From Rhizobium sp. NLR16a (lineage in GTDB: Bacteria; Pseudomonadota; Alphaproteobacteria; Rhizobiales; Rhizobiaceae), in contig NZ_CP072865.1 in assembly GCF_017948245.1 (NCBI RefSeq), positions 1,823,501 to 1,887,500 of the forward strand: a stretch of DNA of 64,000 nucleotides, given 5' to 3'. Every line of letters starts with the position of its first letter. Positions within the stretch are counted from its first letter, which is position 1. Positions 25,543 to 56,972 of the stretch are shown one piece after another. A model generated the notes under the pieces. It was not told the origin of the DNA. It did no database searches and saw nothing but the letters and a program-made list of their open reading frames with translations. The position numbers and the translations under genes are program-made.

Positions 25543-26847
25543 CTATTGTTCCAGTTCGAAAGCGTCCTGGATCATCTGGGCGCCGTCCTTCGAATTCATC
25601 TGTCCGGAGACGATTTCCACCGAGACGTCGTTGACGACACGGCCGACGGCCGCACCGAGATCCTGATCGAAGAAGTTCTGATGCCAGGTCGAACCGGCAA
25701 GCTGTCTGGCCGATTCGGCCAGCAGCGGATTGACGACCCCGTCATCGGCGCCGACGGCGACGGGCAGCAGCATGCCTGATCTGGCCATGGCGCGCTCGTT
25801 GTCGGCGTTCGTCAGGAAAGCAAGGAAATCGATCGCTTCCTTCGAGGCCTTCTTGGTAAGCGCCCAGCCGTTCAGGCCGCCGAGCGTATCCGTCGGCTTG
25901 CCGGCGCCGCCTTCAACCGTCGGGAAGACGAAACGGCCGATATTGTCGGATGAAAGCCCCTTGCCGTCGCCGGCATTCTTGCGCTGGTTGGCCTCGGTCG
26001 CTTCAAAGCCGAGAATCATTGCCGCCTTGCCGTCGCCGAAAACGCCGAGCGTCTGCGGCCAGGTCGCGCCGAGATAGCCGGGCTGGAACGGTTCGAGCTT
26101 GCCGAGCTCGGCGAGATCTTCGCCGGCCTTGATGACGGCCGGATCGAGGAAGCCTTCGCCCTCGCCCTTCTTGGCCGCTTCAAAGACCTTCTGGCCGCCC
26201 TCGCGCATGACAAGATAGCTCCAGTAGAAGTGGATCGGCCATTTCTCGCCGCCGCCGCCGGCGATCGGCACGATACCGGCCGCCTTGATCTTCTTCACCG
26301 CCTCAAGAAAATCGGTCCAGGTCTTGATGTCTTCGGCCTTGACGCCTGCCTTGGCAAACAGCGCCTTGTTATAGAAGAAGCTCACCAGGCCGACTTTGTA
26401 CGGGATTGCCCAGGTCTTGCCGTCGAAGGTCAGGCCGTCGACCGAGGCCGGCGTATAGGCCTTGCGCAGCTTGCCGCCATCGGCGTCGAGGGCTGTCGTC
26501 ACATCCTGGAGCGCGCCGGTCTCGGACTGCTGCTTCAGGACGCCACCGCCCCAGCTGAAAAAGAAATCCGGCACATCGTCGGACTGCAGCAGCGTGGGAA
26601 GCTTGGCCTTGAAGGCCTCGTTTTCGAGAAACTGCATCTGGATGTCGACGTCGGGATGCTGGGCCTCGTATTTCTTGACGATGTCTTCCCAGGCCGCGAC
26701 GTTCTTTGGATCTGTTTCGAGATGCAGCCACTTGACCACCGTCGTCGCCGAGGCGGCCCCGGCTCCGGCCAGCAACATGCCGGCTGCCACGGCCATGGAT
26801 ACGATGCGCCTGCCGCCGAAAGCGGCGTTCTTCAGCATGAAATTCAT
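25543..26847 (-). CDS. sugar-binding protein of ABC transporter (family 1)
   Basis: A 434-residue periplasmic protein. The signal peptide is residues 1-34, ending GAASA before TTVVKWLHLE. Family 1 features include IVKKYEAQHPDVDIQMQ near the start and GGLNGWALTKKASKEAIDFL. A GGGAGGAAAATC site precedes the ATG. It heads the operon and is divergent from the ROK regulator, 199 bases apart. Confidence 0.94.
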   Translation of the reverse strand: MNFMLKNAAFGGRRIVSMAVAAGMLLAGAGAASATTVVKWLHLETDPKNVAAWEDIVKKYEAQHPDVDIQMQFLENEAFKAKLPTLLQSDDVPDFFFSWGGGVLKQQSETGALQDVTTALDADGGKLRKAYTPASVDGLTFDGKTWAIPYKVGLVSFFYNKALFAKAGVKAEDIKTWTDFLEAVKKIKAAGIVPIAGGGGEKWPIHFYWSYLVMREGGQKVFEAAKKGEGEGFLDPAVIKAGEDLAELGKLEPFQPGYLGATWPQTLGVFGDGKAAMILGFEATEANQRKNAGDGKGLSSDNIGRFVFPTVEGGAGKPTDTLGGLNGWALTKKASKEAIDFLAFLTNADNERAMARSGMLLPVAVGADDGVVNPLLAESARQLAGSTWHQNFFDQDLGAAVGRVVNDVSVEIVSGQMNSKDGAQMIQDAFELEQ

Positions 26848-26955
26848 GATTTTCCTCCCAGGGGACCTATCCTCACAATTTTTCCCCTATGCGGATTAAT
26901 TCAGCGGACCTTGCGCCGGATGTCAACCCGATGCGTTAATTTTTGCCGAAATCGC

Positions 26956-27006
26956 TTGACAGCTCCTCGCAATTGCCTGCTATTTATTTCGTAACCCGTT
27001 ATAAAT
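26956..27006 (+). promoter_or_regulatory. candidate promoter and ROK operator
   Basis: TTGACA at 26956-26961 and an extended -10 (TG-C-TATTTA, 26978-26986) lie upstream of the ROK gene, with 19 bases between -35 and -10. The -10 overlaps an inverted repeat ATTTAT (26982-26987) ... ATAAAT (27001-27006) with 13 bases between. NagC/Mlc sites have TTATTT/AAATAA arms of this sort, so autorepression is plausible. The -35/-10 spacing is longer than ideal. Confidence 0.45.
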
Positions 27007-27046
27007 ATTGGCTTCCGCCCAACCAAACGACTGCCGGCACGTTTTC

Positions 27047-28246
27047 ATGAAGACTGCAGATCCAGAATTGATGCGCGCGATCAATCGCTTGAACGTGCTC
27101 GACACCATCAGGCGCCATGGTCCGATCTCGCGCATCGAAATCAGCGAGCGGACGGAGCTGTCGACGACAACCGTCTCGGCCATCACCGCCTCGCTGCTCG
27201 ATGATGGGCTGATCCTGCCGCGGCATGAAGGCGATATCCGCAACGAGGCGGTGCGTGGCAGACCGCGCGTGGCGCTGGAGCTCAATCCCGATGCCGCCCG
27301 CGTCGTCGGCGGCAAGATCGCCGCCAGCCGCATGGTCTTCGTCGTCACCAATTTTCGCGGCGACGTGCTGTCGAAGCTGGCTTTGCCGATCCGCATCGAC
27401 CGGCAGCCGATCGGCGTCATCGCCGATCTCGTCGAGGACGGCGTCCGGCGTTGCGTCGTCGATGCCGGCCTGTCGCTCGAAGATGTCGACAGCATCTGCC
27501 TCGGCTTTCCGGGCGTTATCGAGCACCGCACCGGCTACATCAGAAGCAGCCCGATCTTTCGCGACACCAATGTCGATTTCGCCGCCGAGATGTCGACGCG
27601 GCTATCGACGCCGACCATCGTCGAAAGCGACGCCCACGCCATCACGCTCGGCCATCACTGGTTCGGGAAAGCCCGCGATCTCGAGGACATGGTGCTGATT
27701 TCGCTAGAACAGACGCTCGGTCTCGGCGTCTTGCACGGTAACCGCCTGTTTCGCGGCGCCGGCGGCCTCAGCCACAATCTTGGCGACCTTGTGCTCGGCA
27801 TGGGACCGAACGGCGTGGTGCGGCTCTTCAGCCAGGCCGGCGAAAGCGCCATCCTCGGTGAACATCAGACCGACGGCCGTTTTGCCGAAGCCATCCGCCT
27901 CGGGCGCGGCATGACCCACGCCCAGGCGCTGATCAAGGCCGACGACGACCGGCTGATCGCCTCTGCCATCCGCGCCGGCGAAGCTGTCGGATTGACCATC
28001 GCCAACATCGTTACGCTGTTTGCGCCGCCGCGCGTCATCCTCGTCGGCTCGAGCCTGGCGCTCGGCGAACCCTTCTTGAACAGCCTGCGCGACGCCTATG
28101 CGCTCGCCATTCCGCCGTCGCTGAAGGGGGTAAGCGAACTCGTCTTCGATGATTCGAGCGATGATTTCTGGGCTCAGGGCGCTGCCGCAGTAGCGCTCTA
28201 CGAGCTCTACGAATCGCCCTGGAGCACGACCGGGCCGGCCCTTTGA
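27047..28246 (+). CDS. ROK-family transcriptional regulator
   Basis: A 399-residue regulator of the NagC/Mlc/XylR class. The winged helix-turn-helix is at residues 10-70 (ISRIEISERTELSTTTVSAITASLLDDGLI), followed by an actin-like ROK domain. In the glucokinase-type signature the residues LISLEQTLGLGVLHGNRLFRGAGGLSHNLG replace the usual GxGxGG and Zn-binding CGCxGC is not seen, so it is a regulator, not a kinase. ATG 27047 was preferred over an upstream TTG. It most likely controls the divergent ABC operon and its own dehydrogenase/ThuA genes. Confidence 0.9.
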   Translation: MKTADPELMRAINRLNVLDTIRRHGPISRIEISERTELSTTTVSAITASLLDDGLILPRHEGDIRNEAVRGRPRVALELNPDAARVVGGKIAASRMVFVVTNFRGDVLSKLALPIRIDRQPIGVIADLVEDGVRRCVVDAGLSLEDVDSICLGFPGVIEHRTGYIRSSPIFRDTNVDFAAEMSTRLSTPTIVESDAHAITLGHHWFGKARDLEDMVLISLEQTLGLGVLHGNRLFRGAGGLSHNLGDLVLGMGPNGVVRLFSQAGESAILGEHQTDGRFAEAIRLGRGMTHAQALIKADDDRLIASAIRAGEAVGLTIANIVTLFAPPRVILVGSSLALGEPFLNSLRDAYALAIPPSLKGVSELVFDDSSDDFWAQGAAAVALYELYESPWSTTGPAL

Positions 28247-28280
28247 CGGCCGAGACAAGCAAGATCAAATGGAGGAATTC

Positions 28281-29381
28281 ATGGACAAAGTCGGTATCGG
28301 CATCATTGGATGCGGCAATATTTCGGGCGCCTATCTTACAGCGATGGCCTCCTTTCCCATCCTCGATATCCGCGGCGTCGCTGATCTCAACCGGGAGCTC
28401 GCAGAGGCCAAGGCGCGCGAATTCAACGTTCCCGTCAAATCAGTCGAAGAGCTCTTCGCCGATCCCAAGATCGAAATCATCGTCAATCTGACGATCCCGA
28501 AAGCCCATGTCGCCGTCGCGCTCCAGGCGCTCGATGCGGGCAAACACACGTACTCCGAAAAACCGCTCGGGATTAATTTCGCGGAAGGGAAAAAACTGGC
28601 CGAGGCGGCGCGCGGGCGAAATCTGCGCATCGGCGCGGCGCCCGACACCTTCCTCGGCGGAGGCCACCAGACGGCCCGCGCCCTGATCGACCAAGGCGTC
28701 ATCGGCCAGCCGGTCGGCGGCTCGGCCACCTTCATGTGCCCGGGCCATGAGCGCTGGCATCCGAATCCGGCCTTCTATTACGAAGTCGGCGGCGGGCCGA
28801 TGCTCGATATGGGCCCCTATTACATCACCGATCTCGTCAATCTGCTCGGGCCGGTTTCCCAGGTCGCCGGCTTTGCGACGACGCCGCGGGCCGAACGGCT
28901 CATCACCAGCGAGCCGCGCAATGGCGAGCGCATTCCCGTGCATGTGCCGACCCATGTCGCCGGCATGATGGCTTTTGCCAACGGCGCGGTCGTGCAGATC
29001 GCCATGAGCTTCGACGTCGCCGGCCACAAGCATGTGCCGCTCGAAGTCTACGGAACCGAGGGCACGCTTATCGTCCCCGACCCCAATAAGTTTGCGGGCC
29101 CTGTCGAATATCTGAAGAAGGGCGGCGCCTTCGAGGACCAGCCGGTCACCGCCCCCTATGCCGAGGGCAATTTCCGCTCGCTCGGCGTCGCCGATTTGGC
29201 GCATGCGATCCGCTCGAACCGGCCGCACCGTGCCAATGGTGATCTGGCACTGCATGTGCTCGAAGTCATGGAAGCCTTCCATACAGCGTCCGAGACCGGC
29301 CGGAGGGTGACGATTACCACGGCGGTGGAGCGCCCTGCCCCCCTGTCCGATTCCATCGTCGACGGACGGCTGGCAAAATAA
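28281..29381 (+). CDS. Gfo/Idh/MocA-family oxidoreductase
   Basis: A 366-residue NAD(P)-dependent dehydrogenase. The Rossmann GIIGCGNISG is at residues 7-16, the EKPLG motif with the catalytic lysine at about residues 93-97, and a C-terminal alpha/beta domain follows (GGGPMLDMGPYYITDLVNLLG). Typical reactions are oxidation of a sugar or inositol hydroxyl. AATGGAGGAATTC precedes the ATG. It sits in an operon with the ROK regulator and the ThuA-like gene, an arrangement like thuB-thuA of trehalose catabolism. Confidence 0.92.
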   Translation: MDKVGIGIIGCGNISGAYLTAMASFPILDIRGVADLNRELAEAKAREFNVPVKSVEELFADPKIEIIVNLTIPKAHVAVALQALDAGKHTYSEKPLGINFAEGKKLAEAARGRNLRIGAAPDTFLGGGHQTARALIDQGVIGQPVGGSATFMCPGHERWHPNPAFYYEVGGGPMLDMGPYYITDLVNLLGPVSQVAGFATTPRAERLITSEPRNGERIPVHVPTHVAGMMAFANGAVVQIAMSFDVAGHKHVPLEVYGTEGTLIVPDPNKFAGPVEYLKKGGAFEDQPVTAPYAEGNFRSLGVADLAHAIRSNRPHRANGDLALHVLEVMEAFHTASETGRRVTITTAVERPAPLSDSIVDGRLAK

Positions 29382-29398: not shown

Positions 29399-30040
29399 AT
29401 GCGTGAAGCACTGATCGTCTGGGGTGGCTGGAGCGGGCACGAGCCGCAGGAATGCGCCGAAATCATCAAGACCATGCTCGAGGAAGACGGTTTCAAGGTC
29501 TATCTCGAACACGGGACCGAGGCGCTTGCCGACCCTTCGGTCCACGATCTCAGCCTCGTCGTGCCGATCATGACGATGTCGAAGATCGAAAAGGAGGAGG
29601 TCAAGAACCTCGCCGCCGCGATCGAAAGCGGCGTCGGCATCGCCGGTTATCACGGCGGCGCGGGCGACGCCTTCCGCGACTCCGTCGACTACCAGTTCAT
29701 CATCGGCGGCCAGTGGGTCGCCCATCCCGGCAACATCATCGACTATACCGTCAACATCACCCGGCCCGACGATCCGCTGATGGAGGGGATTGCCGACTTC
29801 CCCTATACGTCGGAGCAATATTACATGCATGTCGATCCCTCGAACGAGGTGCTGGCGACGACCAGGTTCACCGGCGAACACGCTTACTGGATCGACGGCG
29901 TCGTCATGCCCGTCGTCTGGAAGCGCAAATACGGCAAGGGCCGCGTCTTCTATTCCTCACTCGGGCACCAGGCCAAGGAATTCGACGTGCCGGAAATGAA
30001 GACCATCTTCCGCCGCGGCGCCAATTGGGCGGCGCGGTAG
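29399..30040 (+). CDS. ThuA-like domain protein
   Basis: A 213-residue protein with the class I glutamine-amidotransferase-like ThuA fold: IVWGGWSGHEPQECAEI at the start, GIAGYHGGAGDAFRDS in the middle and YGKGRVFYSSLGHQ near the end. In rhizobia ThuA partners ThuB in oxidised-disaccharide metabolism; the chemistry is unclear. GGAGGAAAGAGA sits before the ATG. It is the last gene of the ROK-led operon. Confidence 0.88.
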   Translation: MREALIVWGGWSGHEPQECAEIIKTMLEEDGFKVYLEHGTEALADPSVHDLSLVVPIMTMSKIEKEEVKNLAAAIESGVGIAGYHGGAGDAFRDSVDYQFIIGGQWVAHPGNIIDYTVNITRPDDPLMEGIADFPYTSEQYYMHVDPSNEVLATTRFTGEHAYWIDGVVMPVVWKRKYGKGRVFYSSLGHQAKEFDVPEMKTIFRRGANWAAR

Positions 30041-30771: not shown

Positions 30772-30808
30772 AAAAAGGCATCGGTGCGGGCGCAAATTGA
30801 TGCTTTTC
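30772..30808. promoter_or_regulatory. shared inverted-repeat operator, site A
   Basis: AAAAGGCATC (30773-30782) and GATGCTTTTC (30799-30808) are inverted arms separated by 16 bases, 55 bases before the creatininase start. The same arms with the same 16-base gap occur at 32689-32724 before the ABC operon. A LysR gene lies between the two units and is the likely user. Confidence 0.65.
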
Positions 30809-30863: not shown

Positions 30864-31661
30864 ATGACGGTGCCATTTTACTGGAACGAATTGGTCAGCG
30901 ACGACTTCGCCGGACTGTCTCCCGACACCACGATCGCTGTCCTGCCGATCGCCTCGACCGAGCAGCACGGGCCGCATCTACCCGTTGCTACCGACGTCGC
31001 TATCGCCAACGGCATGCTCGCCGAATTACGCAAGCAGAAACCGGTCGATCTCAATTGTCTGGTGCTGCCGACGCAAGAAATCGGCAAGGCCAATGAACAC
31101 GTTTACGGCCCGGGAACCTTGTCGCTCGGCGCCGAACTGCTCATTCCAGTCTGGACCGCAATCGGCGGAAAGGTTGCCGAAGCCGGCATCCGCAAGATGG
31201 TGATCGTCAATTCGCATGGCGGCAATGTCGATATCATGAGCATCGTGGCTCGCGAGCTGCGCGTGCGCTATGCGATGGCCGTCGTCTCCACCCAATGGAG
31301 CCGCTTCGGCCATCCCGAGGGCATGATCGGCGATAATGAGCTGAAATACGGCATCCATGGCGGCGAGGTGGAAACGTCGCTGATGCTGTATTTCCGACCT
31401 GATCTGGTGCGGATGGAGAAGGCGCAGAATTTCGCCTCGAAGGCGGAATGGATGCGCGGGCAATCGAAATACATTCAGCCGCTGCCGCCGCATTCGCTCG
31501 CCTGGATCGCCCACGACCTCAATCCCCACGGCGTCGTCGGCAACGCCTCACTCGGGACAGCCGAAAAGGGCGAAGCAATCTGCCGCCATCAGGTCAGGGG
31601 CTTCATAGAGCTGCTCTATGACCTGAAGCGCTACCCGCTTTCCAATCTCTACTCGAAGTAA
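30864..31661 (+). CDS. creatininase-family amidohydrolase
   Basis: A 265-residue metal-dependent hydrolase. The binuclear-site motifs are visible: STEQHGPHLPVATDVAIANG near residues 31-50 (Glu, His, Asp ligands), VNSHGGN near 113-119 and IHGGEVETSLML near 155-166. The family opens cyclic amides (creatinine) and also includes sugar-lactam and formamide hydrolases, so the substrate is open. It has its own promoter region with the shared operator and is convergent with the LysR gene. Confidence 0.87.
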   Translation: MTVPFYWNELVSDDFAGLSPDTTIAVLPIASTEQHGPHLPVATDVAIANGMLAELRKQKPVDLNCLVLPTQEIGKANEHVYGPGTLSLGAELLIPVWTAIGGKVAEAGIRKMVIVNSHGGNVDIMSIVARELRVRYAMAVVSTQWSRFGHPEGMIGDNELKYGIHGGEVETSLMLYFRPDLVRMEKAQNFASKAEWMRGQSKYIQPLPPHSLAWIAHDLNPHGVVGNASLGTAEKGEAICRHQVRGFIELLYDLKRYPLSNLYSK

Positions 31662-31670
31662 GGCGGTGGC

Positions 31671-32621
31671 TCACATCGCGGCGGAAGCATAGGCCGCAAT
31701 GTGGCCCTTCGCCTGCAGCTCCTGCACCAGGCCGGCCAGTTCAGCCAGGAGGTACTCGACGAACAGGCTGGTGGCGGAATCAAGCGGCGCGCGGGCGCGG
31801 GCAAAAAGCTTCATCGGCTGATGGCGCGCATGCGGCTCCGCGATCGGGCGGAAAACCAGTTCGCCCTGCCTGCATTCGGTGATGACATCGAGCGGGTTCA
31901 GGATCGTCAGCCCCGCCCCCGATTTGACCAGCTTCTTCAGCATCTCCGAGGCATTGGTTTCGAGCACCGGTTCGACATGGACGTCGAGGCGCGCCAGGGC
32001 CAGATTGATCACGTCGCGCAGGCTGGTCCCCTGCTGCGCCAGCACCAGGCGCTCCTGGACGATATCCGCGAGATTAATTGGGCCGGGGCCGATCAGATGA
32101 TGGCCGGGCGGCAGAACCACGCCGATCGGTATGTCGAAATTGCCGAGGGTGCGGATGCCGGGCGTTGCCGGAATATTGAATCCGAGGCCGATATCCACCT
32201 CACCTGAAAGCACCGGGTTGACCGTCATCGTGCCGGCGTCGTTGCGTAATTGCATGAAGACGCGCGGATGTTCCGATTGGAACCGGGCGATAATTTCCGG
32301 CAGCGGCCCTGCCGCAAGGCCGACCGTCGTCACCAGCCGAACCTTGCCCGCCTGCTGCATCTTCAGGCTGCGGATACGCCCCTCCAGCCGCTCGTAATTC
32401 TTCAGCACGTCGCGAATATGTTCGATACAGAGCTCGCCGGCGGCGGTGAGCCGCAATCCGCGCGGCAGGCGTTCGAAGAGCGGCGCGCCCATTTCCTCCT
32501 CCAGCGCAAGGATCTGCCGGTTAATCGCAGAAGAGGCCACGTTCAGCCGTGCCGCCGCCTTGCGGATCGAGCCCGAACGCGCGATCTCGTTGATATAGAG
32601 AAGCTTTCTGGAATGCAGCAT
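31671..32621 (-). CDS. LysR-family regulator of the catabolic cluster
   Basis: A 316-residue regulator. The helix-turn-helix is at residues 1-60 (YINEIARSGSIRKAAARLNVASSAINRQILALEEEMG), then the effector-binding domain. The ATG at 32621 has GCAACGAGG before it; the longer frame adds six residues. It lies between the creatininase gene and the divergent ABC operon, and both have the same inverted repeat upstream, so it probably activates both in response to the pathway substrate. Confidence 0.92.
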   Translation of the reverse strand: MLHSRKLLYINEIARSGSIRKAAARLNVASSAINRQILALEEEMGAPLFERLPRGLRLTAAGELCIEHIRDVLKNYERLEGRIRSLKMQQAGKVRLVTTVGLAAGPLPEIIARFQSEHPRVFMQLRNDAGTMTVNPVLSGEVDIGLGFNIPATPGIRTLGNFDIPIGVVLPPGHHLIGPGPINLADIVQERLVLAQQGTSLRDVINLALARLDVHVEPVLETNASEMLKKLVKSGAGLTILNPLDVITECRQGELVFRPIAEPHARHQPMKLFARARAPLDSATSLFVEYLLAELAGLVQELQAKGHIAAYASAAM

Positions 32622-32687
32622 CAGAACCTCGTTGCACAAATATCAGGCACGCAGCGTAAAATGGGCACAGGCTTTTGGTGAGATGCC

Positions 32688-32724
32688 GAAAAGGCATCAT
32701 TGCGCACGAAATTTGATGCTTTTC
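32688..32724. promoter_or_regulatory. shared inverted-repeat operator, site B
   Basis: GAAAAGGCATC (32688-32698) and GATGCTTTTC (32715-32724), gap 16 bases, lie between the divergent LysR gene (start 32621) and the binding-protein gene (start 32804). About ten of the 16 gap bases also match site A. A nested GATGCC-gaaaa-GGCATC hairpin (32682-32698) overlaps the left arm. Confidence 0.65.
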
Positions 32725-32803
32725 AAAGAGCAAAGCAACGGCTCCTATGAAGAAAATCGGACGTCGCCGCGACGGCTGCGAACTCAGAAGGGGAACGTCG
32801 ATC

Positions 32804-33820
32804 ATGCCCATGACAAAGAAGAACAGGGTCTTTTCCGCATTGGCCGGGCTTGGCGGCATGATTGCCTCCATCGCGTCCGCTCAGGCGGCCGACAAGGTCA
32901 CCTATGGCACCAACTGGCTTGCGCAGGCCGAGCATGGCGGCTTCTACCAGGCGGTCGCCGACGGCACCTATGCCAAACACGGCCTCGACGTCACCATCGT
33001 ACAGGGCGGCCCGAACGCCGCCAACAGCGCGCTGCTGATCTCCGGCAAGATCGATTTCTACATGGGCGGGCCGCAGGGCGAGATTTCGGCGGTCGAGCAG
33101 GGCATTCCGCTCGTCGATGTCGCTGCGATCTTCCAGAAGGATCCGCAGGTGCTGATCGCGCACCCCGATGCCGGCATCGAAAAATTCGAAGATCTCGCCA
33201 AGCTGAAGACGCTGTTCCTCGGCAAGGACGGTTATCTCACCTATTTCGAATGGATGAAGGCGAACTTCAAAGGCTTCCGCGACGAACAGTACAAGCCCTA
33301 CAATTTCAGCCCGGCGCCCTTCCTTGCCGACAAGGATTCTGCGCAGCAAGGTTATCTCACCTCGGAACCCTACGAGATTCGGAAGCAGGCCGGCTTCGAG
33401 CCGAAAGTCTTCCTGCTCGCCGACAACGGCTACTCTCCCTACTCGACGATGATCACCACCACGCAGGCGATGATCGACAGCAAGCCCGATCTCGTCCAGC
33501 GCTTCGTCGATGCCTCGATCGAAGGCTGGTACCACTATCTCTACGGCGACAACACCAAGGCCAACGAACTGATCAAAAAGGACAATCCCGAAATGACGGA
33601 TGGTCAGATCGCTTATTCCATCGCCAAGATGAAGGAGTACGGCATCATCGAGTCCGGCGACAGCCTCGACAAGGGCATCGGCTGCCTGACCGAGGCGCAT
33701 TACAAGGGCTTCTTCGACGAAATGGTAGCGATCAAGGTGTTCAAGGCGGAGACGGATTACACCAAGGCCTTCACGACGAAATTCGTCTGCAAGGGCACGG
33801 GAATGGCGATGAAGAAGTAA
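32804..33820 (+). CDS. NMT1/SsuA-type substrate-binding protein
   Basis: A 338-residue periplasmic binding protein of the NMT1/THI5-like group, which carries sulfonates, pyrimidine precursors, taurine or other small N/S compounds. The signal peptide spans residues 1-28 (ending SAQA). Then comes YGTNWLAQAEHGGFYQAVADGTYAKHGLDVTIVQGG, the classic first lobe. AGAAGGGGAAC precedes the ATG at 32804. No thiamine riboswitch signature is visible upstream. It opens the catabolic operon. Confidence 0.9.
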   Translation: MPMTKKNRVFSALAGLGGMIASIASAQAADKVTYGTNWLAQAEHGGFYQAVADGTYAKHGLDVTIVQGGPNAANSALLISGKIDFYMGGPQGEISAVEQGIPLVDVAAIFQKDPQVLIAHPDAGIEKFEDLAKLKTLFLGKDGYLTYFEWMKANFKGFRDEQYKPYNFSPAPFLADKDSAQQGYLTSEPYEIRKQAGFEPKVFLLADNGYSPYSTMITTTQAMIDSKPDLVQRFVDASIEGWYHYLYGDNTKANELIKKDNPEMTDGQIAYSIAKMKEYGIIESGDSLDKGIGCLTEAHYKGFFDEMVAIKVFKAETDYTKAFTTKFVCKGTGMAMKK

Positions 33821-33886
33821 GCCGAAGATTCCGTCGGCGATCCGCCGCATACGGCGGATTCCATTCCCTGATGAACGAGACAGCCA

Positions 33887-34714
33887 ATGCCCCCAGCAGA
33901 AGCTCAGGCCCTATCCCCGAAAGAGATGCGCAAGCGGCCGTTGGTCGTCATGCAATCGGTCTCGAAAGCCTTCTCCACCGGAACCGTCGCCCTTTCGAAG
34001 ATGTCGCTCACAGTGGAGAGCGGCGAGTTCATCAGCCTGCTCGGTCCTTCCGGCTGCGGCAAGTCGACGGCGCTGCGCATCATCGCCGGCCTCGGCGATG
34101 TCACGTCAGGCGCGATCGACTGGCCGAGTTCTCGGATCAATTCCAAGGGCCTTCCGGAGGGGGATATCGGTTTCGTCTTTCAGGAGCCGACGTTGATGCC
34201 CTGGAAGACCGTGTTCGACAATGTGCATCTGCCGCTGAAGCTGAGGCATATTTCGAAGATGGCGGCGCACGACCAGATCTTGGACGTGCTGACAACCGTC
34301 GGCCTGCAGGATTTCGCCAAGGCCTATCCGCGCGAACTATCAGGCGGCATGAAGATGCGCGTTTCGATCGCCCGGGCGCTGGTGACCAAGCCGAAGCTGC
34401 TGCTGATGGACGAGCCCTTTGCGGCTCTCGACGAGATCACCCGCCAGAAGCTGAACGACGACGTGCTCCGGCTCTGGAAGATGACCGGCATCACAGTCAT
34501 CTTCGTCACTCATTCGGTCTTCGAATCCGCCTATCTCTCGAACCGCATCGTCGTGATGAAGGCAAGGCCTGGGCGCGTTCATGCCGACCTACCGCTCACG
34601 ACCAGCCTTGAACGCGATGCCCATTACCGCACCTCGGAAGAATACCGCAGAGCTTGCGAGACGGTGTCGCATTCGCTGATCGGGGCGATCAACGCGGTGG
34701 AGGACCATCGATGA
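33887..34714 (+). CDS. nitrate/sulfonate-type ABC ATPase (SsuB-like)
   Basis: A 275-residue ATPase. Walker A GPSGCGKST (53-61), the Q-loop FVFQEPTLMPWKTV, the signature LSGGMKMRVS (151-160) and Walker B LLMDEPFAALDE are typical of the SsuB/TauB/NrtD branch. It overlaps the permease gene by four bases (ATGA). Confidence 0.93.
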   Translation: MPPAEAQALSPKEMRKRPLVVMQSVSKAFSTGTVALSKMSLTVESGEFISLLGPSGCGKSTALRIIAGLGDVTSGAIDWPSSRINSKGLPEGDIGFVFQEPTLMPWKTVFDNVHLPLKLRHISKMAAHDQILDVLTTVGLQDFAKAYPRELSGGMKMRVSIARALVTKPKLLLMDEPFAALDEITRQKLNDDVLRLWKMTGITVIFVTHSVFESAYLSNRIVVMKARPGRVHADLPLTTSLERDAHYRTSEEYRRACETVSHSLIGAINAVEDHR

Positions 34715-35553
34715 GTGATGAAACGGCCGCGGCGCCGCTGCTTGTCAAAACCACTGCAAGCGCCCGAGGCCGCGATCTGGCGCTGCGCATAATGATCCCG
34801 CTGCTGGTCATCGCGGCGCTGATCCTGATCTGGTATGCCTATGTCCGACTGTCCGGCGTGCCGCCCTATATTCTGCCGGGTCCGGCGGCGGTCGCCAACG
34901 CTTTCATCACGGATTGGGGCACGCTTGCCCCTGCCCTGTGGGTCACCACCAAAATCACGCTGATGTCGCTGATGCTGGCGCTCGTCGGCGGCGTCGGCTT
35001 CGCAGTCTTCCTCGTGCAGTCGCGCTGGATCGAACTCGCTTTCTATCCGCTCGCCGTCGTACTTCAGGTCACGCCGATCGTGGCGATTTCGCCGCTGATC
35101 CTGATCTATACGCCGTCAACGCAGGTGGCGCTTCTGATCTGCGCCTTCCTCGTCGCCTTTTTCCCGATCCTTTCGAATATGGTTCAGGGGCTTAAAAGCG
35201 TCGATCACAATCTCATCAACCTCTTCGAGCTCTACGGCGCCTCGCGCTGGCAGACGCTGCTCTTTCTCAAGCTGCCGGCCGCCCAGCCCTATTTCATGAC
35301 CGGCCTCAGGATAGGCGGCGGCCTTGCGCTGATTGCCGCCGTCGTCGCGGAATTTGCCGCAGGTTCGGCGGGGGCAGGCTCAGGACTCGCCTTCCGGCTG
35401 CTCGAAGCGCAGTACCGGCTCAACATTCCACGGCTCTTCGCGGCGCTGCTGATGCTCTCGCTGCTTGGCGTGGCGATTTTCGCCGTCACCTCGTTCATTT
35501 CGTGGCTTGCCCTGCACCGCTGGCACGAAAGCAGCCTGAAACGGGAAAACTGA
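34711..35553 (+). CDS. nitrate/sulfonate-type ABC permease (SsuC-like)
   Basis: A 280-residue permease with six membrane segments. PPYILPGPAAVANAF near residue 50 and LFELYGASRWQTLLFLKLPAAQPYFMTGLRIG (the ATPase-coupling loop) are characteristic of the SsuC/TauC family. It starts inside the ATPase stop and ends inside the start of the following hydrolase (TGATG), so the three are tightly coupled. Confidence 0.93.
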   Translation: MSDETAAAPLLVKTTASARGRDLALRIMIPLLVIAALILIWYAYVRLSGVPPYILPGPAAVANAFITDWGTLAPALWVTTKITLMSLMLALVGGVGFAVFLVQSRWIELAFYPLAVVLQVTPIVAISPLILIYTPSTQVALLICAFLVAFFPILSNMVQGLKSVDHNLINLFELYGASRWQTLLFLKLPAAQPYFMTGLRIGGGLALIAAVVAEFAAGSAGAGSGLAFRLLEAQYRLNIPRLFAALLMLSLLGVAIFAVTSFISWLALHRWHESSLKREN

Positions 35554-36866
35554 TGACCTATTCCTTCATCTCCCCGCCCAATGCCGGTCGCTTCGTGCTG
35601 AGCAATGCGACCCTGCCCTCCGCCGCCGTCGCCGGTTACGAGGCGCCTGTTGTCGAGGGGCTCGTCCGAGCCGATATCGTCATCGCCGACGGCATCATTG
35701 CTGGTGTACTGCCGCCCGGGGAAGCGCCCGTGGAACTGGCGAAGTCCGACCTGAAGGAGGGCATGGTCTGGCCCTGCTTCGCAGACATGCACACCCATCT
35801 CGACAAGGGCCACATCTGGCCGCGCAACGCCAATCCGGACGGCACATTCCCGGGAGCACTGGAGGCCGTGCGCGCAGACCGCGAGGCGCACTGGTCGGCT
35901 GCCGACGTCAGGAAGCGCATGGAGTTTTCCCTTCGATCCGCCTACGCACACGGCACCAGCCTCATTCGAACCCATCTCGATTCCCTTGCGCCGCAGCACC
36001 GCATTTCATTCGAAGTCTTTGCCGAAATGCGCGATGTCTGGAAGGACAGGATCGCCCTACAGGCGGTGGCGCTGTTTCCGATGGAAAACATGGCGGACGC
36101 GGCCTATTTCGCCGATCTCGTCACTGTGGTCCGCGAAAAGGGTGGGCTGATCGGCGGCGTCACCCGGATGAGCGGCGATCTCGACAGCCAGCTCGACACG
36201 CTGTTCAGCGCTGCGGCCGAGAATGGCCTCGATGTCGACCTTCATGTCGACGAGACCGACGATCCGGCTGCGGAAACCCTGAAGGCGATTGCGCAAGCGG
36301 TGCTGCGCAACCGATTCGGCGGCAAGGTAACGGCAGGCCATTGCTGCTCGCTCGCCCGCCAGGACGAGGAGACGGCAAAACGCACGGTCGATCTCGTCGC
36401 GGAGGCCGGTGTCGCCATCGTCTCGCTGCCGATGTGCAACACGTATCTGCAAGACCGCTATCCCGGCCGCACACCACGCTGGCGCGGCGTCACCCTGTTC
36501 AAGGAACTGGCCGCGGCCGGCGTCGCGACGGCAGTCGCCTCCGACAATACCCGCGATCCCTTCTATGCCTACGGCGATCTGGATCCGGTGGAGGTGTTCC
36601 GCGAGGCGGTCCGTATCCTGCACCTCGACCATCCGCTGGATACGGCGGCACGCGTCGTCACCACCTCGCCCGCCGATATTCTCGGCCGGCCGGATATGGG
36701 GCGTATCGCCGTCGGGGCCGCGGCCGATCTCGTACTCTTCAGCGCCAGGCGCTGGAGCGAATTTCTTTCCCGTCCGCAGTCCGACCGCGTCGTCCTTCGC
36801 CGCGGCAAGGTGATCGACCGCAGCCTGCCGGACTATCGTGAACTCGACAGCGTCGTTGGAGCCTGA
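35553..36866 (+). CDS. cytosine deaminase-family amidohydrolase
   Basis: A 437-residue metal-dependent hydrolase of the CodA/amidohydrolase superfamily. Metal-site motifs: DMHTHLDKGH near residues 75-84, HVDETDDP near 231-238, GHCCSL near 263-268 and the catalytic SDNTRDPF near 330-337. CodA-type enzymes deaminate cytosine, isoguanine or creatinine. Coupled translation with the transporter permease suggests the imported compound, or the product of the creatininase-like enzyme, is its substrate. Confidence 0.87.
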   Translation: MTYSFISPPNAGRFVLSNATLPSAAVAGYEAPVVEGLVRADIVIADGIIAGVLPPGEAPVELAKSDLKEGMVWPCFADMHTHLDKGHIWPRNANPDGTFPGALEAVRADREAHWSAADVRKRMEFSLRSAYAHGTSLIRTHLDSLAPQHRISFEVFAEMRDVWKDRIALQAVALFPMENMADAAYFADLVTVVREKGGLIGGVTRMSGDLDSQLDTLFSAAAENGLDVDLHVDETDDPAAETLKAIAQAVLRNRFGGKVTAGHCCSLARQDEETAKRTVDLVAEAGVAIVSLPMCNTYLQDRYPGRTPRWRGVTLFKELAAAGVATAVASDNTRDPFYAYGDLDPVEVFREAVRILHLDHPLDTAARVVTTSPADILGRPDMGRIAVGAAADLVLFSARRWSEFLSRPQSDRVVLRRGKVIDRSLPDYRELDSVVGA

Positions 36867-36867
36867 C

Positions 36868-38277
36868 ATGCCGGATTATCAGACGATCAAAAAGGAACTC
36901 GAAGGCATCGCCATCGAGGATAATCCGGCACTGGTGCGCCAGAAGAGTCGTGATTTCTACTGGTATTCGCCGATCCTGAAGGCGCAGCTCGACAATGTGA
37001 CGGCCGATCTCGTCGTTACCCCGAAAAACGAAGAAGAGGTCATCCGGACGCTGAAGGTCGCCTTCGCGCATGGCGTGCCGGTCACGCCGCGCGGCGGCGG
37101 CACTGGCAATTACGGCCAGGCGATGCCGCTTTCCGGTGGGATCGTGCTGAACCTTGCCGCCATGGACAAGATCAAGGAAATTCATCCCGGCCGGGTGATC
37201 TGCGAGCCGGGCATCATCATTGCCCAGCTCGACAAGCAGACCAAGGCGCATTCCGGCCAGGAACTGCGGTTCCACCCCTCGACGGCGCAGATGGCGACCG
37301 TCGGCGGCTTCATTGCCGGCGGCTCCGGCGGCGTCGGCTCGATCACCTGGGGCGGCCTGCGCGATCTCGGCAATATTCTGCGCCTGCGCGTCGTCACCAT
37401 GGAGACTGAGCCGCGCGTGCTCGATCTCACCGGCTGGGACCTGCAGAAGGTCAGTCACGCTTACGGCACCAACGGCGTCATCACCGAGATCGAAATGCCG
37501 CTGGCGCCTGCCTATGATTGGGTGGACGTTCTCGTCGGCTATGACGACTTCATGGCTGCCGTGCGCTTCTCCGATGCGCTCGCCAAATGCAACGGCATTC
37601 TCGTCAAGGAAATCGCGCCGATCGCCGCTCCGATCCCGCACGACTATTTCACCCGCCACAAGCCCTACATCCGCAAGGGGCAGTCGGTGGTGGTGCTGAT
37701 GATCGCGCCGCATGCGATGGACGCTTTCCTGGCCTTCACCTCGGCCCATAAGGGCGAAGTGATCTTCCGCTCAGACAAGGTCGAGAGCATGAAGGGCATC
37801 CCGCATGCCTATGAACTTGCCTGGAACCACACGACGCTGCGGGCGCTGAAGGTCGATCCGGGCTTCACCTATCTGCAGGTCCAGTATCCGGGGCCGGATC
37901 ACGTGACCAAGGTCGCCAAGATGGTGGAAATCTTCGGCGACGAAGTTCCGGGGCATCTAGAGTTCATCAAATTCGACGGGCAGATCCAGTGCTCCGGCCT
38001 GCCGCTGGTGCGCTACACCACCGAAGAGCGCCTCGAAGAGATCATCCGGATCCATCAGGATCACGGCTGCCCGATCTTCAACCCGCACCGCTACACGCTC
38101 GAGGAAGGCGGCATGAAGCGCACCGACAAGGTGCAGCTTGCCTTCAAGCAGGAAACCGATCCGAAGGGGCTTCTGAACCCCGGCAAGATGATCGCCTGGG
38201 AGAACCCGGACTTCGATTTCAATGCCGGCAAGAACTATCTCTTCCCCGGCCTTGCGGGCCTCATGGAGGCCTCATGA
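36868..38277 (+). CDS. FAD-linked oxidase (GlcD/VAO-type)
   Basis: A 469-residue flavoenzyme. The PCMH FAD-binding domain includes VTPRGGGTGNYGQAMPLSGG near residues 80-100 and HPSTAQMATVGGFIAGGSGGVGS near 140-162; the C-terminal cap ends HQDHGCPIFNPHRYTLEEGG and DPKGLLNPGKMI, typical of D-2-hydroxyacid and related dehydrogenases. It has no iron-sulfur partner in the cluster. It starts two bases after the deaminase stop (TGACATG) and probably oxidises a pathway intermediate, with electrons passed to a quinone or O2. Confidence 0.88.
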   Translation: MPDYQTIKKELEGIAIEDNPALVRQKSRDFYWYSPILKAQLDNVTADLVVTPKNEEEVIRTLKVAFAHGVPVTPRGGGTGNYGQAMPLSGGIVLNLAAMDKIKEIHPGRVICEPGIIIAQLDKQTKAHSGQELRFHPSTAQMATVGGFIAGGSGGVGSITWGGLRDLGNILRLRVVTMETEPRVLDLTGWDLQKVSHAYGTNGVITEIEMPLAPAYDWVDVLVGYDDFMAAVRFSDALAKCNGILVKEIAPIAAPIPHDYFTRHKPYIRKGQSVVVLMIAPHAMDAFLAFTSAHKGEVIFRSDKVESMKGIPHAYELAWNHTTLRALKVDPGFTYLQVQYPGPDHVTKVAKMVEIFGDEVPGHLEFIKFDGQIQCSGLPLVRYTTEERLEEIIRIHQDHGCPIFNPHRYTLEEGGMKRTDKVQLAFKQETDPKGLLNPGKMIAWENPDFDFNAGKNYLFPGLAGLMEAS

Positions 38278-38855
38278 GGGTTCTCGTGCTGCATTCGCAT
38301 CCGGTGGAGGAAAGCTACGGCAAGGCGCTCTACAAGCAGACGCTGGAAAGCCTGCGCAAAGCCGGCCATGACGTGGACGGATGCGATCTCTATGCCGAGA
38401 ATTTCGATCCCGTTCTTTCCCGGCATGACCGGCTCAGCTATCACGACTATCCCTCCAATACCGAGCTGGTGAAATCCTATGTCGAGCGGCTGAAGCGGGC
38501 CGAAGGGCTGGTGCTGGTCACGCCGGTCTGGAATTTCGGCTTCCCGGCGATATTGAAGGGATATTTCGATCGCGTCTGGCTTCCCGGTGTCTCCTTTGAA
38601 CTGGTCGACGGCAAGGTGGAATCGCGGCTGCGCCATATCAGGAAGCTTGCCGCCGTGCTGACTTATGGCGCGACGCCGTTCCGCGCCTTCGTGGCTGGCA
38701 ACCCGCCGAGGAAGATCGTCAAGCGCGTGCTGCGAGCGCAGATCAACCCGCTGCGGCCGGTCACCTTTCTTGCCCATTACGACATGAATAATTGTACCGA
38801 GGAAACGCGGACACGGTTTCTGCAGAAGGTGAAGAGCGCGATGGAGCGCTTCTGA
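38274..38855 (+). CDS. NAD(P)H:quinone oxidoreductase, flavodoxin fold
   Basis: A 193-residue protein of the NQO1/KefF type: LVLHSHPVEESYGKALYKQTL at the N-terminus binds FMN or FAD, and LVTPVWNFGFPAILKGYFDRVWLPG in the middle forms the active-site loop. The start overlaps the FAD oxidase stop (ATGA). It may supply reduced flavin or recycle quinone for the oxidase, but a direct partnership is an inference from gene order. Confidence 0.88.
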   Translation: MRVLVLHSHPVEESYGKALYKQTLESLRKAGHDVDGCDLYAENFDPVLSRHDRLSYHDYPSNTELVKSYVERLKRAEGLVLVTPVWNFGFPAILKGYFDRVWLPGVSFELVDGKVESRLRHIRKLAAVLTYGATPFRAFVAGNPPRKIVKRVLRAQINPLRPVTFLAHYDMNNCTEETRTRFLQKVKSAMERF

Positions 38856-38906
38856 GCATGCGGAAGGACTGTCCGCCGAAACACCTGGTTCAGGCAGGGA
38901 TATCCG

Positions 38907-39299
38907 ATGAAGAAGGTTTTTAACCCGATCTCCGTCCGCCGCCCATTCGGGCATTACAATCACGGGCTGCTGGTGCCGCCGGGCGCCTCCCTGCTCGTGA
39001 CCTCGGGCCAGCTCGGCATCGGCCCCGACGAGGCGGTACCGGAGGATATCGGCGCACAGGCGGAACTCTGCTTTGAAGCCATCAAGGCAATTCTCGCCGA
39101 GGCCGAGATGAGTTTTGCCGACGTTATCCGCATCTCCGCCTTCGTGACGAAGCGAGAGGATTTCCCAGCCTACATGGCCGTGCGGGATCGTTACACGCTC
39201 GATCCGAAGCCGGCCTCAACACTGATCATCGTCGGCGGCTTCACCCGCCCGGAATTCCTCGTGGAAGTCGAAGTCACGGCCGCCAAGGTGTTTTGCTGA
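38907..39299 (+). CDS. Rid-family (YjgF/YER057c/UK114) protein
   Basis: A 130-residue protein with the Rid trimer fold: FGHYNHGLLVPPGASLLVTSGQLGIG, the core IRISAFVTKREDFPAYMAVRDRY and the terminal strand VEVEVTAAK. RidA enzymes hydrolyse reactive enamines and imines. The conserved carboxylate-binding arginine (in PARS of RidA) is not seen here; the equivalent stretch reads KPAST, as in the divergent Rid subfamilies. It ends the catabolic operon, consistent with handling an imine or carbamate intermediate from the FAD oxidase. Confidence 0.88.
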   Translation: MKKVFNPISVRRPFGHYNHGLLVPPGASLLVTSGQLGIGPDEAVPEDIGAQAELCFEAIKAILAEAEMSFADVIRISAFVTKREDFPAYMAVRDRYTLDPKPASTLIIVGGFTRPEFLVEVEVTAAKVFC

Positions 39300-42022: not shown

Positions 42023-42205
42023 ATGACCCGATTCCTCACCTTGTTCGCGACCAGCGCGATGATCGGCGCGTCCACGCTCGCGGCTTCCTGTACCTCGCCC
42101 GCGAGGCTGGATCGGGAGGATTATCAATATCAGCTGGATACTTCGAGGAATCCGGCCTGTGCGGGCGGTTTCAGACCCGGCAATGCTCGCTCGTGCAGCT
42201 ACTGA
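42023..42205 (+). CDS. small putative lipoprotein
   Basis: A 60-residue protein with an N-terminal signal (MTRFLTLFATSAMIGASTLAASC) ending in a lipobox-like AAS-Cys at residue 24, followed by a short polar tail with two more Cys. AGGAGAAGCTC precedes the ATG. It is probably an anchored envelope peptide; no family is recognised. Confidence 0.55.
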   Translation: MTRFLTLFATSAMIGASTLAASCTSPARLDREDYQYQLDTSRNPACAGGFRPGNARSCSY

Positions 42206-42308
42206 AAAGTCCGCTTATGGCAATGGGAGGTTTGGCGCATCAGGAGCCGCGATAACCGTTGCAGAGCGGTCGATCGGCTGCATAGCCAAGAGAAACATTG
42301 GAAACACC

Positions 42309-43181
42309 GTGGATCCTACGCTGAACAGAGATTTCCTTGAACTCCACTCACTGCCGCTGGACACTGTCGCTGCGATTATCGACCGAGCCGGCCAGCTTGC
42401 GAAGCATTGGGCGGGCCGCACCATGCCGCAATCCCTGCATGGCAAACGGGTGAGCCTTATCGTCGATGACACGGGATGGCGCAATACGGCCGCCTTTGAC
42501 CTCGGTGTGAAGGCCATGGGCGGCGTCTGCGTGCAACCGCAAATCAGCTTCAACGCCCGCGAGACCACCGCCGACCTTGCGGACTATCTCGACAATTGGT
42601 TTGACCTTCTCGTCGTCAGGACGAAGGAACTTGCTACCCTGCAAGAGCTCGCGGCGGTCATGGATGCGCCTGTCATCAATGCCCGGACAAGACTAAATCA
42701 TCCGTGTGAGACGCTCGGCGATCTCGCCTACATCAAGAGCGTCAGGGGATCGCTGCAAGGCCTGAAGGTTGTCGGGATCGCGCCAGATGCCAACATTCTT
42801 CGTTCCTGGGTCGAGGCAGCGAAATCCATGCCCATCCGCGTCGTCCAAGTCTATCCGGAGCGCTGGCACGTAGCCGATCCCCATCTCCTGAATCCGAATT
42901 TCGAAATCAGCCGAGATATCAGTCATGCCCTCGATGCGGACGTCGTCATCACGGACTCGTGGCCGAAAGACGCGGCGGAAAGCGAGCTGACGGAATATCA
43001 GGTGACGGCAACGCTCCTCGACAAAGGACGGCGTGACACGATCTTCTTGCCCTGCCCGCCCGTCGCAAGGGGACAGGAAGTAACGGCCGACGCGATGTTG
43101 CACCCTGCCTGCCAAAGCCGTCCCGCAAAAGCATTCCTGCTTCACGCCCAGAATGCGCTGATGGAGTGGGTTTTGTCTTGA
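42309..43181 (+). CDS. ornithine carbamoyltransferase-like protein, altered motif
   Basis: A 290-residue protein of the aspartate/ornithine carbamoyltransferase fold. HPCETLGDL (131-139) matches the HPxQ carbamoyl-phosphate motif with Glu for Gln, and FLPCPPVARGQEVTADAM (247-264) matches the HCLP ornithine loop without its His. The STRTR phosphate loop is replaced by TGWRNT (55-60). It begins at a GTG behind TTGGAAAC. No arginine-pathway gene is adjacent. It is likely to be a paralogue with another carbamoyl acceptor, or inactive. Confidence 0.75.
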   Translation: MDPTLNRDFLELHSLPLDTVAAIIDRAGQLAKHWAGRTMPQSLHGKRVSLIVDDTGWRNTAAFDLGVKAMGGVCVQPQISFNARETTADLADYLDNWFDLLVVRTKELATLQELAAVMDAPVINARTRLNHPCETLGDLAYIKSVRGSLQGLKVVGIAPDANILRSWVEAAKSMPIRVVQVYPERWHVADPHLLNPNFEISRDISHALDADVVITDSWPKDAAESELTEYQVTATLLDKGRRDTIFLPCPPVARGQEVTADAMLHPACQSRPAKAFLLHAQNALMEWVLS

Positions 43182-55931: not shown

Positions 55932-56085
55932 CGCAATCTCCGCTACTGAGCAACGATCGCCCTGCCATCAAAGAGGAACTGACGCATGATTTCAATCTCG
56001 GGGCGCAACCGTCACTTCGGGGATGATGTTCAGCCGCTCACCTCGCTGATGGCAGTTGCTACTCACTTGGGCATATTTCCCGTCC

Positions 56086-56399
56086 ATGCATGAAGCGCCC
56101 GAAAATCACCCCGGTCGCCCTCCGCACCACCCTACGGACAGGCAGCGCCGTCTTGTCCAAGTGCTTGCCGCCGAGGGCATTCCGCAACGCGAAATCTGCC
56201 GCGCGCTAGAGATCGATCCGACAACGCTGAGGAAGCGCTATCGCCGCGAGCTGGACATCGGCGCCGCGAAGCTCGAATGCACCCTCACTTTCCACCTCCT
56301 CCGTATCGCCGGAGGTAGAGGCGCCGTAGCGTTGAAGCCGGTCCGGTTCGCGTTGCAGGTTTCGGTTGGTCGGAATTCGCGCCACGGCCGCCTTGCTGA
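56086..56399 (+). pseudogene. frameshifted helix-turn-helix protein
   Basis: The first frame reads GRPPHHPTDRQRRLVQVLAA...IPQREICRALEIDPTTLRKRYRRELDIGAAKLECTLTFHLLRIAGG, which resembles a small HTH protein of phage-terminase-small-subunit character. After the codons for RFALQ (near 56356) the original frame runs on without sense, while the next frame continues GFGWSEFAPRPPC and stops at 56399. Adding one G at the GG near 56358 restores a 104-residue protein. It is either a real frameshift or a sequencing error. Confidence 0.6.
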
Positions 56400-56478
56400 A
56401 GCTGAAGCCAAACCAAGTCCTTGCGCCAGCCGTTGTATTCGACCGGTGGCCTACCGGCCTCGCTGTCTCTGGAAGCAC

Positions 56479-56874
56479 TTAAGAGGCACGCAGCTTCTTT
56501 TGTGCGTTCAGCGCCGATACAAAGTGGAAAACAGACACCGGCACGGCAGCGAATGCAAACTGCCGCAACGTCGAAAGAAAGCTGGACTGCAGCTCGGCTT
56601 GCATAAAGTCGCCGAACATCGATATAAATGCTGCAAAAACCAAGCCTTGGAGGGTAGCGTATTCAGCTATTCGGGCAACGGATCGGTCCCGCAGGTTCTC
56701 GGGCGGAAAGAAACCAGCCAGTCCCTTCATCGCAAGCAAAAAGAGCGGAAACAGCAAGCCAAGCTTGAACAGTGTGGTCGGCGAAGTGGTCTCATCAGTG
56801 AGGTACAAGCCTAGGGGGATGACAAACGCGGGCACGAGAAAGATAAGGTAGTCCTTGAGCACCTGATTTTTCAC
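56479..56874 (-). CDS. membrane protein, unknown
   Basis: A 131-residue hydrophobic protein with probable segments at residues 6-26, 36-56, 70-95 and 100-120. The GTG at 56874 is preceded by GTATGGAGGCTCACC, an excellent ribosome site; a longer TTG-initiated frame adds nine residues. Composition is less GC-rich than the core genes. No family recognised; it lies in the eroded accessory region. Confidence 0.6.
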   Translation of the reverse strand: MKNQVLKDYLIFLVPAFVIPLGLYLTDETTSPTTLFKLGLLFPLFLLAMKGLAGFFPPENLRDRSVARIAEYATLQGLVFAAFISMFGDFMQAELQSSFLSTLRQFAFAAVPVSVFHFVSALNAQKKLRAS

Positions 56875-56972
56875 GGTGAGCCTCCATACCTCGTCAATCA
56901 AAGATTGTAGTTTTCAGGAGTTGATGTCAACGAGCTCTGTGCTCGATTCGCAGATTGTGCAGCGCCGGCCCC

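What the first reader, a model, noticed from the sequence alone, without database searches (positions are those of the whole stretch)
30864..39299. Possible undescribed catabolic pathway for a nitrogenous ring compound
One regulon appears to combine a creatininase-family hydrolase, a cytosine/creatinine-deaminase-family hydrolase, an FAD oxidase, a flavodoxin-fold reductase, a Rid protein and an NMT1/SsuA-type transporter, with several genes translationally coupled. I know no named pathway with this exact set; uptake, oxidation, ring opening and deamination of a cyclic amide or pyrimidine-like compound is the inference.
Basis: partly seen in the sequence, partly recalled or inferred. Interest (0 to 1): 0.75.

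Follow-up and report, generated by a model that had tools for sequence, protein, structure and literature searches.

The report
Likely pterin-breakdown gene cluster in Rhizobium
This is a real, widely conserved bacterial gene cluster that probably imports and breaks down a pyrimidine-ring compound, most likely a fragment of the vitamin folate, and two of its enzymes appear to have been detected in pea but not lentil root nodules.

Summary
Window 30864-39299 encodes a creatininase-family hydrolase, an opposed LysR regulator, an NMT1-type ABC importer, a cytosine-deaminase-type amidohydrolase, a FAD flavoprotein, a flavodoxin-fold reductase and a Rid protein, several with overlapping starts and stops. 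All nine genes recur in 66 of 80 close relatives; creatininase, importer, amidohydrolase and flavoprotein recur, reshuffled, in 28 of 40 distant proteobacterial loci. A composite operator occurs only twice in the 6.58-Mb genome, upstream of the two transcription units here. Main correction: the flavoprotein is about 65% identical to PDB 6V42, titled 'flavin oxygenase ... involved in folate catabolism'. RutR-like regulators beside some relatives, a binding protein weakly nearest to thiamin-pyrimidine binders, and the deaminase also point to a pyrimidine ring. Best reading: a pterin/folate-derived catabolic module; substrate and reaction order are inferred. It does not match creatinine degradation, cytosine deaminase or the Rut pathway. 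Proteins RLV_169/RLV_170 of R. leguminosarum UPM791, very probably the orthologous deaminase and flavoprotein, were found in pea but not lentil bacteroids (PMC7950203). My ten searches of an open-licence library found no paper describing the pathway.

The parts
30777..30808 (+). composite operator upstream of the creatininase gene (GGCATC-N15-TGATGCTTTTC)
   Evidence: one of only two genome-wide matches
30864..31661 (+). creatininase-family amidohydrolase, 265 aa
   Evidence: PF02633 233.6 bits; below all NCBIfam cutoffs; active-site columns
31671..32621 (-). LysR-type regulator, start ATG at 32621
   Evidence: single close match in the genome at E<=1e-40
32682..32724 (+). operator block in the LysR-SBP gap: inverted repeat GATGCC-N5-GGCATC plus TTTGATGCTTTTC
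   Evidence: conserved in a 17-sequence alignment; genome-wide search
32804..33820 (+). NMT1/THI5-like periplasmic substrate-binding protein (longer ORF starts 32747)
   Evidence: PF09084 98.3 bits; weak PDB matches 4nmy, THI5, 3ix1, THI13
33887..34714 (+). ABC transporter ATPase
   Evidence: PF00005
34711..35553 (+). ABC transporter permease
   Evidence: PF00528; ATGA overlap
35553..36866 (+). cytosine-deaminase-type amidohydrolase
   Evidence: NF005759 692.8 bits, cutoff 403
36868..38277 (+). FAD flavoprotein of the 6V42 family
   Evidence: PDB 6v42 E=7.9e-214; title and 65% identity
38274..38855 (+). flavodoxin-fold NAD(P)H oxidoreductase
   Evidence: PF02525 101.4 bits
38907..39299 (+). 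Rid-superfamily protein without the RidA Arg105
   Evidence: PF01042

Best explanation
A LysR-controlled uptake-and-degradation module for a pyrimidine-ring compound, most likely a pterin (folate-derived). Shown: gene content, conserved linkage, shared operator. Inferred, in this order: the NMT1-type ABC importer brings in the pterin or a folate fragment; the amidohydrolase removes its exocyclic amino group as ammonia; the flavodoxin-fold NAD(P)H reductase supplies reducing power; the FAD flavoprotein (6V42 family) oxidises or oxygenates the ring so that it can open; the creatininase-family hydrolase cleaves the resulting amide or lactam; the Rid-like protein deals with an enamine or imine product; LysR controls both transcription units.
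For: FAD protein matches PDB 6v42 end to end (E=7.9e-214; 65% identity, title 'flavin oxygenase with cofactor bound involved in folate catabolism'). 6V42 is 73-75% identical to FAD proteins of seven module-bearing loci. The amidohydrolase keeps the CodA metal and catalytic positions in 115 of 115 aligned sequences. The SBP's PDB matches are pyrimidine binders THI5/THI13 and 3ix1, plus 4nmy, all weak (E 2e-9 to 6e-4). TetR regulators beside the module in L088, L089 and L094 have RutR as best family. Linkage. Shared operator. Adjacent proteins RLV_169/170 expressed in pea bacteroids (PMC7950203; orthology inferred).
Against: I saw no paper behind 6V42, only its title. RutR-like proteins are far below the RutR cutoff (115-154 vs 368 bits) and the SBP is far below its subfamily cutoff (29.2 vs 163.5). 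No folate-specific gene (for example carboxypeptidase G) was recognised beside the module in the annotated records I read, though I did not search for one. Rid lacks the RidA Arg. TauD or 2-oxoglutarate oxygenases lie beside the FAD gene in a few relatives, which pterin degradation does not obviously need. Pea-only detection is not explained by so general a substrate as folate. The predicted FAD model is poor (pLDDT 43).
Confidence: 0.5

Rival explanations
1. The substrate is a plant pyrimidine metabolite rather than a pterin, for example the uracil amino acids willardiine/isowillardiine of pea or vicine-type aglycones (plant chemistry recalled).
For: Deaminase, RutR-like regulators and SBP point to a pyrimidine ring; RLV_169/170 were found in pea and not lentil bacteroids (PMC7950203).
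Against: The module also sits in roseobacters from seawater or seaweed, Klebsiella and Pantoea, where such plant compounds are not expected; the 6V42 title names folate.
Confidence: 0.15
2. The substrate is an N-methylated heterocycle or betaine (homarine, trigonelline, N-methylhydantoin); flanking demethylation genes complete the pathway.
For: Two DAO-GCV_T proteins and an aminotransferase lie near the module in Mesorhizobium-like loci (Pfam tested on L137 and L142 only), and TauD or 2-oxoglutarate oxygenases lie next to the FAD gene or in its run of genes in L131, L136 and L093.
Against: The DAO-GCV_T genes are convergent to the module in the five layouts printed. No genome under 3.3 Mb among those sampled carries the FAD gene, whereas the homarine genes are reported in SAR11 (recalled; the 2026 paper is not held).
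Confidence: 0.12
3. Thiamin-pyrimidine (HMP or FAMP) salvage or catabolism.
For: NMT1/THI5 family SBP, weakly similar to THI5/THI13 and the formylaminopyrimidine binder 3ix1.
Against: SBP similarity is weak; no thiamin genes were seen in the module; the FAD family is labelled folate catabolism.
Confidence: 0.08
4. Creatinine degradation or cytosine salvage, as the family names suggest.
For: Family names and conserved hydrolase metal-site positions; the amidohydrolase passes the NF005759 'cytosine deaminase' cutoff.
Against: Creatininase model 86.9 bits vs cutoff 235; Gly at Y121 and E122 in 114/114 and never Trp at W174; CodA D314 and W319 replaced in 115/115; neither pathway explains the FAD protein.
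Confidence: 0.05

Closest known systems
PDB 6V42/6V43 flavin oxygenase 'involved in folate catabolism'
   Same: Same FAD protein family, about 65% identical over 459 residues; its nearest relatives among my loci lie in the same gene module
   Different: Substrate, organism and gene cluster of 6V42 are not known to me beyond the title; no paper seen
Rut pyrimidine-degradation operon
   Same: Logic: flavin-dependent oxidation, NAD(P)H reductase, Rid protein, hydrolase, transporter; RutR-like regulators next to the module in L088, L089, L094
   Different: FAD_binding_4 flavoprotein; an ABC importer; creatininase and CodA-type hydrolases; Rid 32.2 bits vs RutC cutoff 169.1; LysR regulator here (RutA and RutG types recalled)
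Pterin deaminase Arad3529 and its Variovorax orthologue (folic acid deamination)
   Same: An amidohydrolase proposed to deaminate a pterin ring (PMC9513972, passages)
E. coli cytosine deaminase CodA
   Same: Fold family; metal and catalytic positions identical
   Different: D314 to N and W319 to F in 115 of 115 sequences
Creatininase (P. putida), MftE, ArfB, IolN
   Same: Creatininase family
   Different: Below every NCBIfam equivalog cutoff; Y121, E122, W174 not conserved

Membership tests
6V42 flavin-oxygenase family | Full-length sequence homology | tested here: met
   E=7.9e-214 over residues 5-463, 65% identity
6V42 flavin-oxygenase family | Oxygenase activity on a folate-derived substrate | not testable with these tools
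   Needs enzyme assay; only the PDB title was seen
Creatininase | Passes the creatininase equivalog model and keeps Y121, E122, W174 (roles recalled) | tested here: not met
   86.9 vs cutoff 235 bits; Gly, Gly and mostly Tyr/Phe in 114 aligned sequences
Cytosine deaminase (CodA) | Metal and catalytic residues H61, H63, H214, E217, H246, D313 | tested here: met
   115 of 115 aligned sequences, window included
Cytosine deaminase (CodA) | Substrate-site D314 and W319 (roles recalled) | tested here: not met
   N and F in 115 of 115
NF005759 'cytosine deaminase' model | Score above the curated cutoff | tested here: met
   692.8 vs 403 bits; the name is an annotation, not a tested function
RidA | Imine-binding Arg105 (recalled) | tested here: not met
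   Arg of YabJ aligns with Ser; Ser-Thr invariant in 13 aligned members
Rut pathway | RutC-type Rid protein | tested here: not met
   32.2 vs cutoff 169.1 bits
Rut pathway | RutA-type luciferase-like oxygenase (recalled) | tested here: not met
   The module's flavoprotein is FAD_binding_4
Rut pathway | RutR regulator | tested here: not met
   LysR here; relatives' TetR proteins score 114.7-153.7 vs cutoff 368
Pterin deaminase (Arad3529) | Orthology to Arad3529 | not tested
   Sequence not available; Fan et al. 2013 not held
Homarine (hom) operon | Homology to the published hom genes | not testable with these tools
   Paper not held

The most novel reading that the evidence does not exclude
A complete, unpublished pterin/folate-ring degradation pathway, from uptake through deamination, flavin-dependent ring opening and lactam hydrolysis, spread on plasmids and chromosomes among Proteobacteria and switched on inside the nodules of particular legumes, so that rhizobia recycle host pterin nitrogen in a host-specific way.
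Probability: 0.33. Interest if true: 0.75.

Novelty: new variant of a known kind. Interest (0 to 1): 0.6.

Why it matters
How soil and plant-associated bacteria break down the pterin ring of folate is poorly documented: a 2022 study of Variovorax identifies glutamate removal and deamination and leaves open how the products are decomposed (PMC9513972, passages). This module supplies a concrete candidate set of enzymes with a transporter and a regulator, in genetically tractable rhizobia. The pea-versus-lentil difference (PMC7950203) makes it a ready test of which host compound bacteroids meet in one legume and not another.

Tried and rejected
Creatinine and cytosine catabolism were set aside on cutoffs and active-site positions. 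The Rut pathway was rejected as membership and kept as an analogy. PaoABC beside the creatininase is not counted as part of the module: it is there in R. johnstonii 3841 and in 7 of the 80 genome contigs relatives. Two other genome matches of the 13-base half-operator (L158, L161; contexts L162, L163) lack the GGCATC partner and I take them for probable chance, although composition alone predicts only 0.09 matches in the genome and four were found, two of them here; they could be further sites. The DAO-GCV_T and aminotransferase genes of Mesorhizobium-like loci run convergent to the module in the five layouts printed and were left out. The structure route was weak: the FAD model had pLDDT 43 and served only to reach the PDB entry title through a match that rests mainly on sequence. 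My crude ORF caller merged or mis-tagged families, so no counts are taken from it. The column of CodA Q156 is ambiguous (M in the pairwise alignment, P), so no claim is made on it. In some searches and 97 sequences with stops or short matches were dropped by the script, among them the deaminases of L090 and L132. All 10 paper searches gave no description of the module; only open-licence papers are held.
Full report
What is there. Pfam and NCBIfam assign creatininase family (30864-31661 +), LysR (31671-32621 -), NMT1-type binding protein (32804-33820 +), ABC ATPase (33887-34714 +), permease (34711-35553 +), NF005759 'cytosine deaminase' amidohydrolase (35553-36866 +), FAD_binding_4 flavoprotein (36868-38277 +), Flavodoxin_2 reductase (38274-38855 +) and Rid (38907-39299 +). 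In my searches the LysR protein was given two residues short (31674-32618). Start and stop codons overlap or nearly touch at ATPase/permease, permease/amidohydrolase, amidohydrolase/FAD and FAD/reductase. The genome has 6.58 Mb in 8 contigs; the window lies on a contig of 4.06 Mb.

It is one unit. In the 80 loci fetched by the FAD protein from genome contigs (the best 80 of 260 confirmed, 83-98% identical at the FAD protein, mostly Rhizobium, so not independent), 79 hold creatininase, importer, amidohydrolase and FAD gene together and 66 hold all nine. Some misses are truncated contigs; Rid was not seen in 13. I then examined 40 more distant loci: 9 of the 29 plasmid records with under 80% identity, and 31 regions covering 32 of the 37 places (not fetched: this genome, three same-genus genomes and G051). 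The core of creatininase, three importer genes, amidohydrolase and FAD is complete in 28 of 40. FAD is in 40 by construction, amidohydrolase in 36, ATPase and SBP in 35, creatininase and permease in 34, reductase in 28, Rid in 26, LysR in 7, all nine in 1 (the 60-bit cut misses divergent copies such as the Rid genes annotated in L089-L091). Gene order is reshuffled between lineages, which argues for selection rather than mere inheritance of a block. The flavoprotein family is patchy: 32 of 398 sampled genomes of the phylum at E<=1e-50 and 19 of 385 of the class at E<=1e-40 (both samples include this genome). In those 32 genomes the best amidohydrolase lies within 12 kb of a FAD gene in 31 and the best creatininase in 26.

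It is one regulon, at least for two transcription units. A block between LysR and SBP, GATGCC-N5-GGCATC followed about 15 bases later by TTTGATGCTTTTC, is conserved in a 17-sequence alignment while most of its surroundings vary. The same GGCATC-N-TGATGCTTTT arrangement precedes the creatininase gene. In the whole genome it occurs exactly twice, at these two places, with 0 for the reversed pattern. A slightly looser form (GGCATC-N-GATGCTTTT) occurs 97 times in 1,657,341 bases of the 80 relatives. With the window counted, it lies upstream of the creatininase in 25 and of the SBP in 74 of 80 loci; taking off the window leaves 24 and 73, so the 97 are accounted for by these two sites. Thus the composite form is missing at the creatininase in 55 of 80. 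The half-site GATGCTTTTC alone is upstream of the creatininase in 55 of 79 relatives and of the SBP in 74 of 79. Rid is on the strand opposite to the FAD gene in 55 of the 67 relatives where it was seen, and its upstream region lacks the half-site, apart from one unlike match in L052, so Rid may be controlled separately there.

What the proteins say about the substrate. The FAD protein matches PDB 6v42_A over nearly its whole length (E=7.9e-214) at 65% identity, and the entry is titled 'Crystal structure of the flavin oxygenase with cofactor bound involved in folate catabolism'. I found no paper behind that entry. The amidohydrolase keeps all metal and catalytic positions of cytosine deaminase but changes two substrate-site positions in every one of 115 sequences, the window included. 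The creatininase-family protein keeps the positions aligned with E34, H36, D45, H120, H178 and E183, but not Y121, E122 or W174 of creatininase, in 114 sequences. The binding protein is nearest, weakly, to 4nmy, THI5, 3ix1 and THI13. The Rid protein lacks the RidA Arg; Ser-Thr is invariant there in 13 aligned members. TetR regulators next to the module in L088, L089 and L094 have RutR as their best family though far below its cutoff. Several weak lines thus point to a pyrimidine ring, and one strong match by title to folate.

Expression. In R. leguminosarum bv. viciae UPM791, proteins RLV_169 'Cytosine deaminase like' and RLV_170 'Putative FAD-binding dehydrogenase' of plasmid pRlvA are listed as pea-specific: seen in all three pea bacteroid replicates and no lentil replicate (PMC7950203; passages, and section 22 part 1 with Table 3). 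I equate them with this operon by inference: pRlvA (NZ_CP025507.1) holds one place for each gene, adjacent, at 181-184 kb, with all nine module genes, and gene numbers 169-170 fit that position at about one gene per kb; the tag-to-coordinate table was not seen.

Mechanism and rivals. The scheme in Best explanation is an inference from families and from the 6V42 title. Shown are only the gene content, the linkage and the operator; expression in pea bacteroids rests on the orthology inference above. Rivals are plant pyrimidines, N-methylated heterocycles and thiamin pyrimidines. DAO-GCV_T genes, TauD and 2-oxoglutarate oxygenases near some module copies keep the second alive; the pea-only detection keeps the first alive. 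Other papers were seen only as passages: PMC9513972, PMC1557990, PMC5748692, PMC13390433, PMC12093977, PMC4782375.

Verdict. The substrate is narrowed to a pyrimidine-ring compound, most likely pterin or folate-derived (0.5).

Noticed in passing
L137:11398-18164, L142:14189-15370: Two DAO-GCV_T proteins (dimethylglycine/sarcosine-dehydrogenase type) and a class I/II aminotransferase lie beside the module; BLAST-related ORFs also in L139, L141, L143-L145, L157 (Pfam run on L137 and L142 only).
   Followed up: partly
L131:10261-11151, L136:10246-11133, L093:11618-12538: TauD-family or 2OG-Fe(II) oxygenases next to the FAD gene or in the same run of genes; possible extra step or different substrate in these relatives.
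   Followed up: partly
L087:1-2692 and L087:11569-13446: In R. johnstonii 3841 the module is flanked by paoABC (divergent from the creatininase gene) and a methyl-accepting chemotaxis protein; both recur in several R. leguminosarum-group loci. The chemoreceptor could sense the same substrate.
   Followed up: partly
window 33840-33859: Perfect 8-bp inverted repeat with a 4-base loop between the SBP and ATPase genes, seen by eye; it may set a higher SBP than ATPase level.
   Followed up: no
L148 (G012:C1:546000-565900): One genome carries two different FAD-protein genes 3.4 kb apart (61% and 47% identical to the window's), each with its own reductase and sharing the neighbourhood of a creatininase.
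   Followed up: no
window 29399-30040: ThuA-family gene just upstream of the finding, with the oxidoreductase-like, ROK-like and sugar-binding-protein-like ORFs before it (25543-29381, by eye); only ThuA was Pfam-tested.
   Followed up: no
window 42159-43181: Aspartate/ornithine carbamoyltransferase-like protein close to the module; not seen as a recurrent neighbour.
   Followed up: no
window 56001-64000: G+C falls to 0.53-0.58 and a phage-type integrase lies at 59846-61141: possible integrated element.
   Followed up: no
window 2324-3847 and 10185-12704: Two large ORFs (507 and 839 aa) have no Pfam match at E<=0.001; whether both are real genes was not checked.
   Followed up: no
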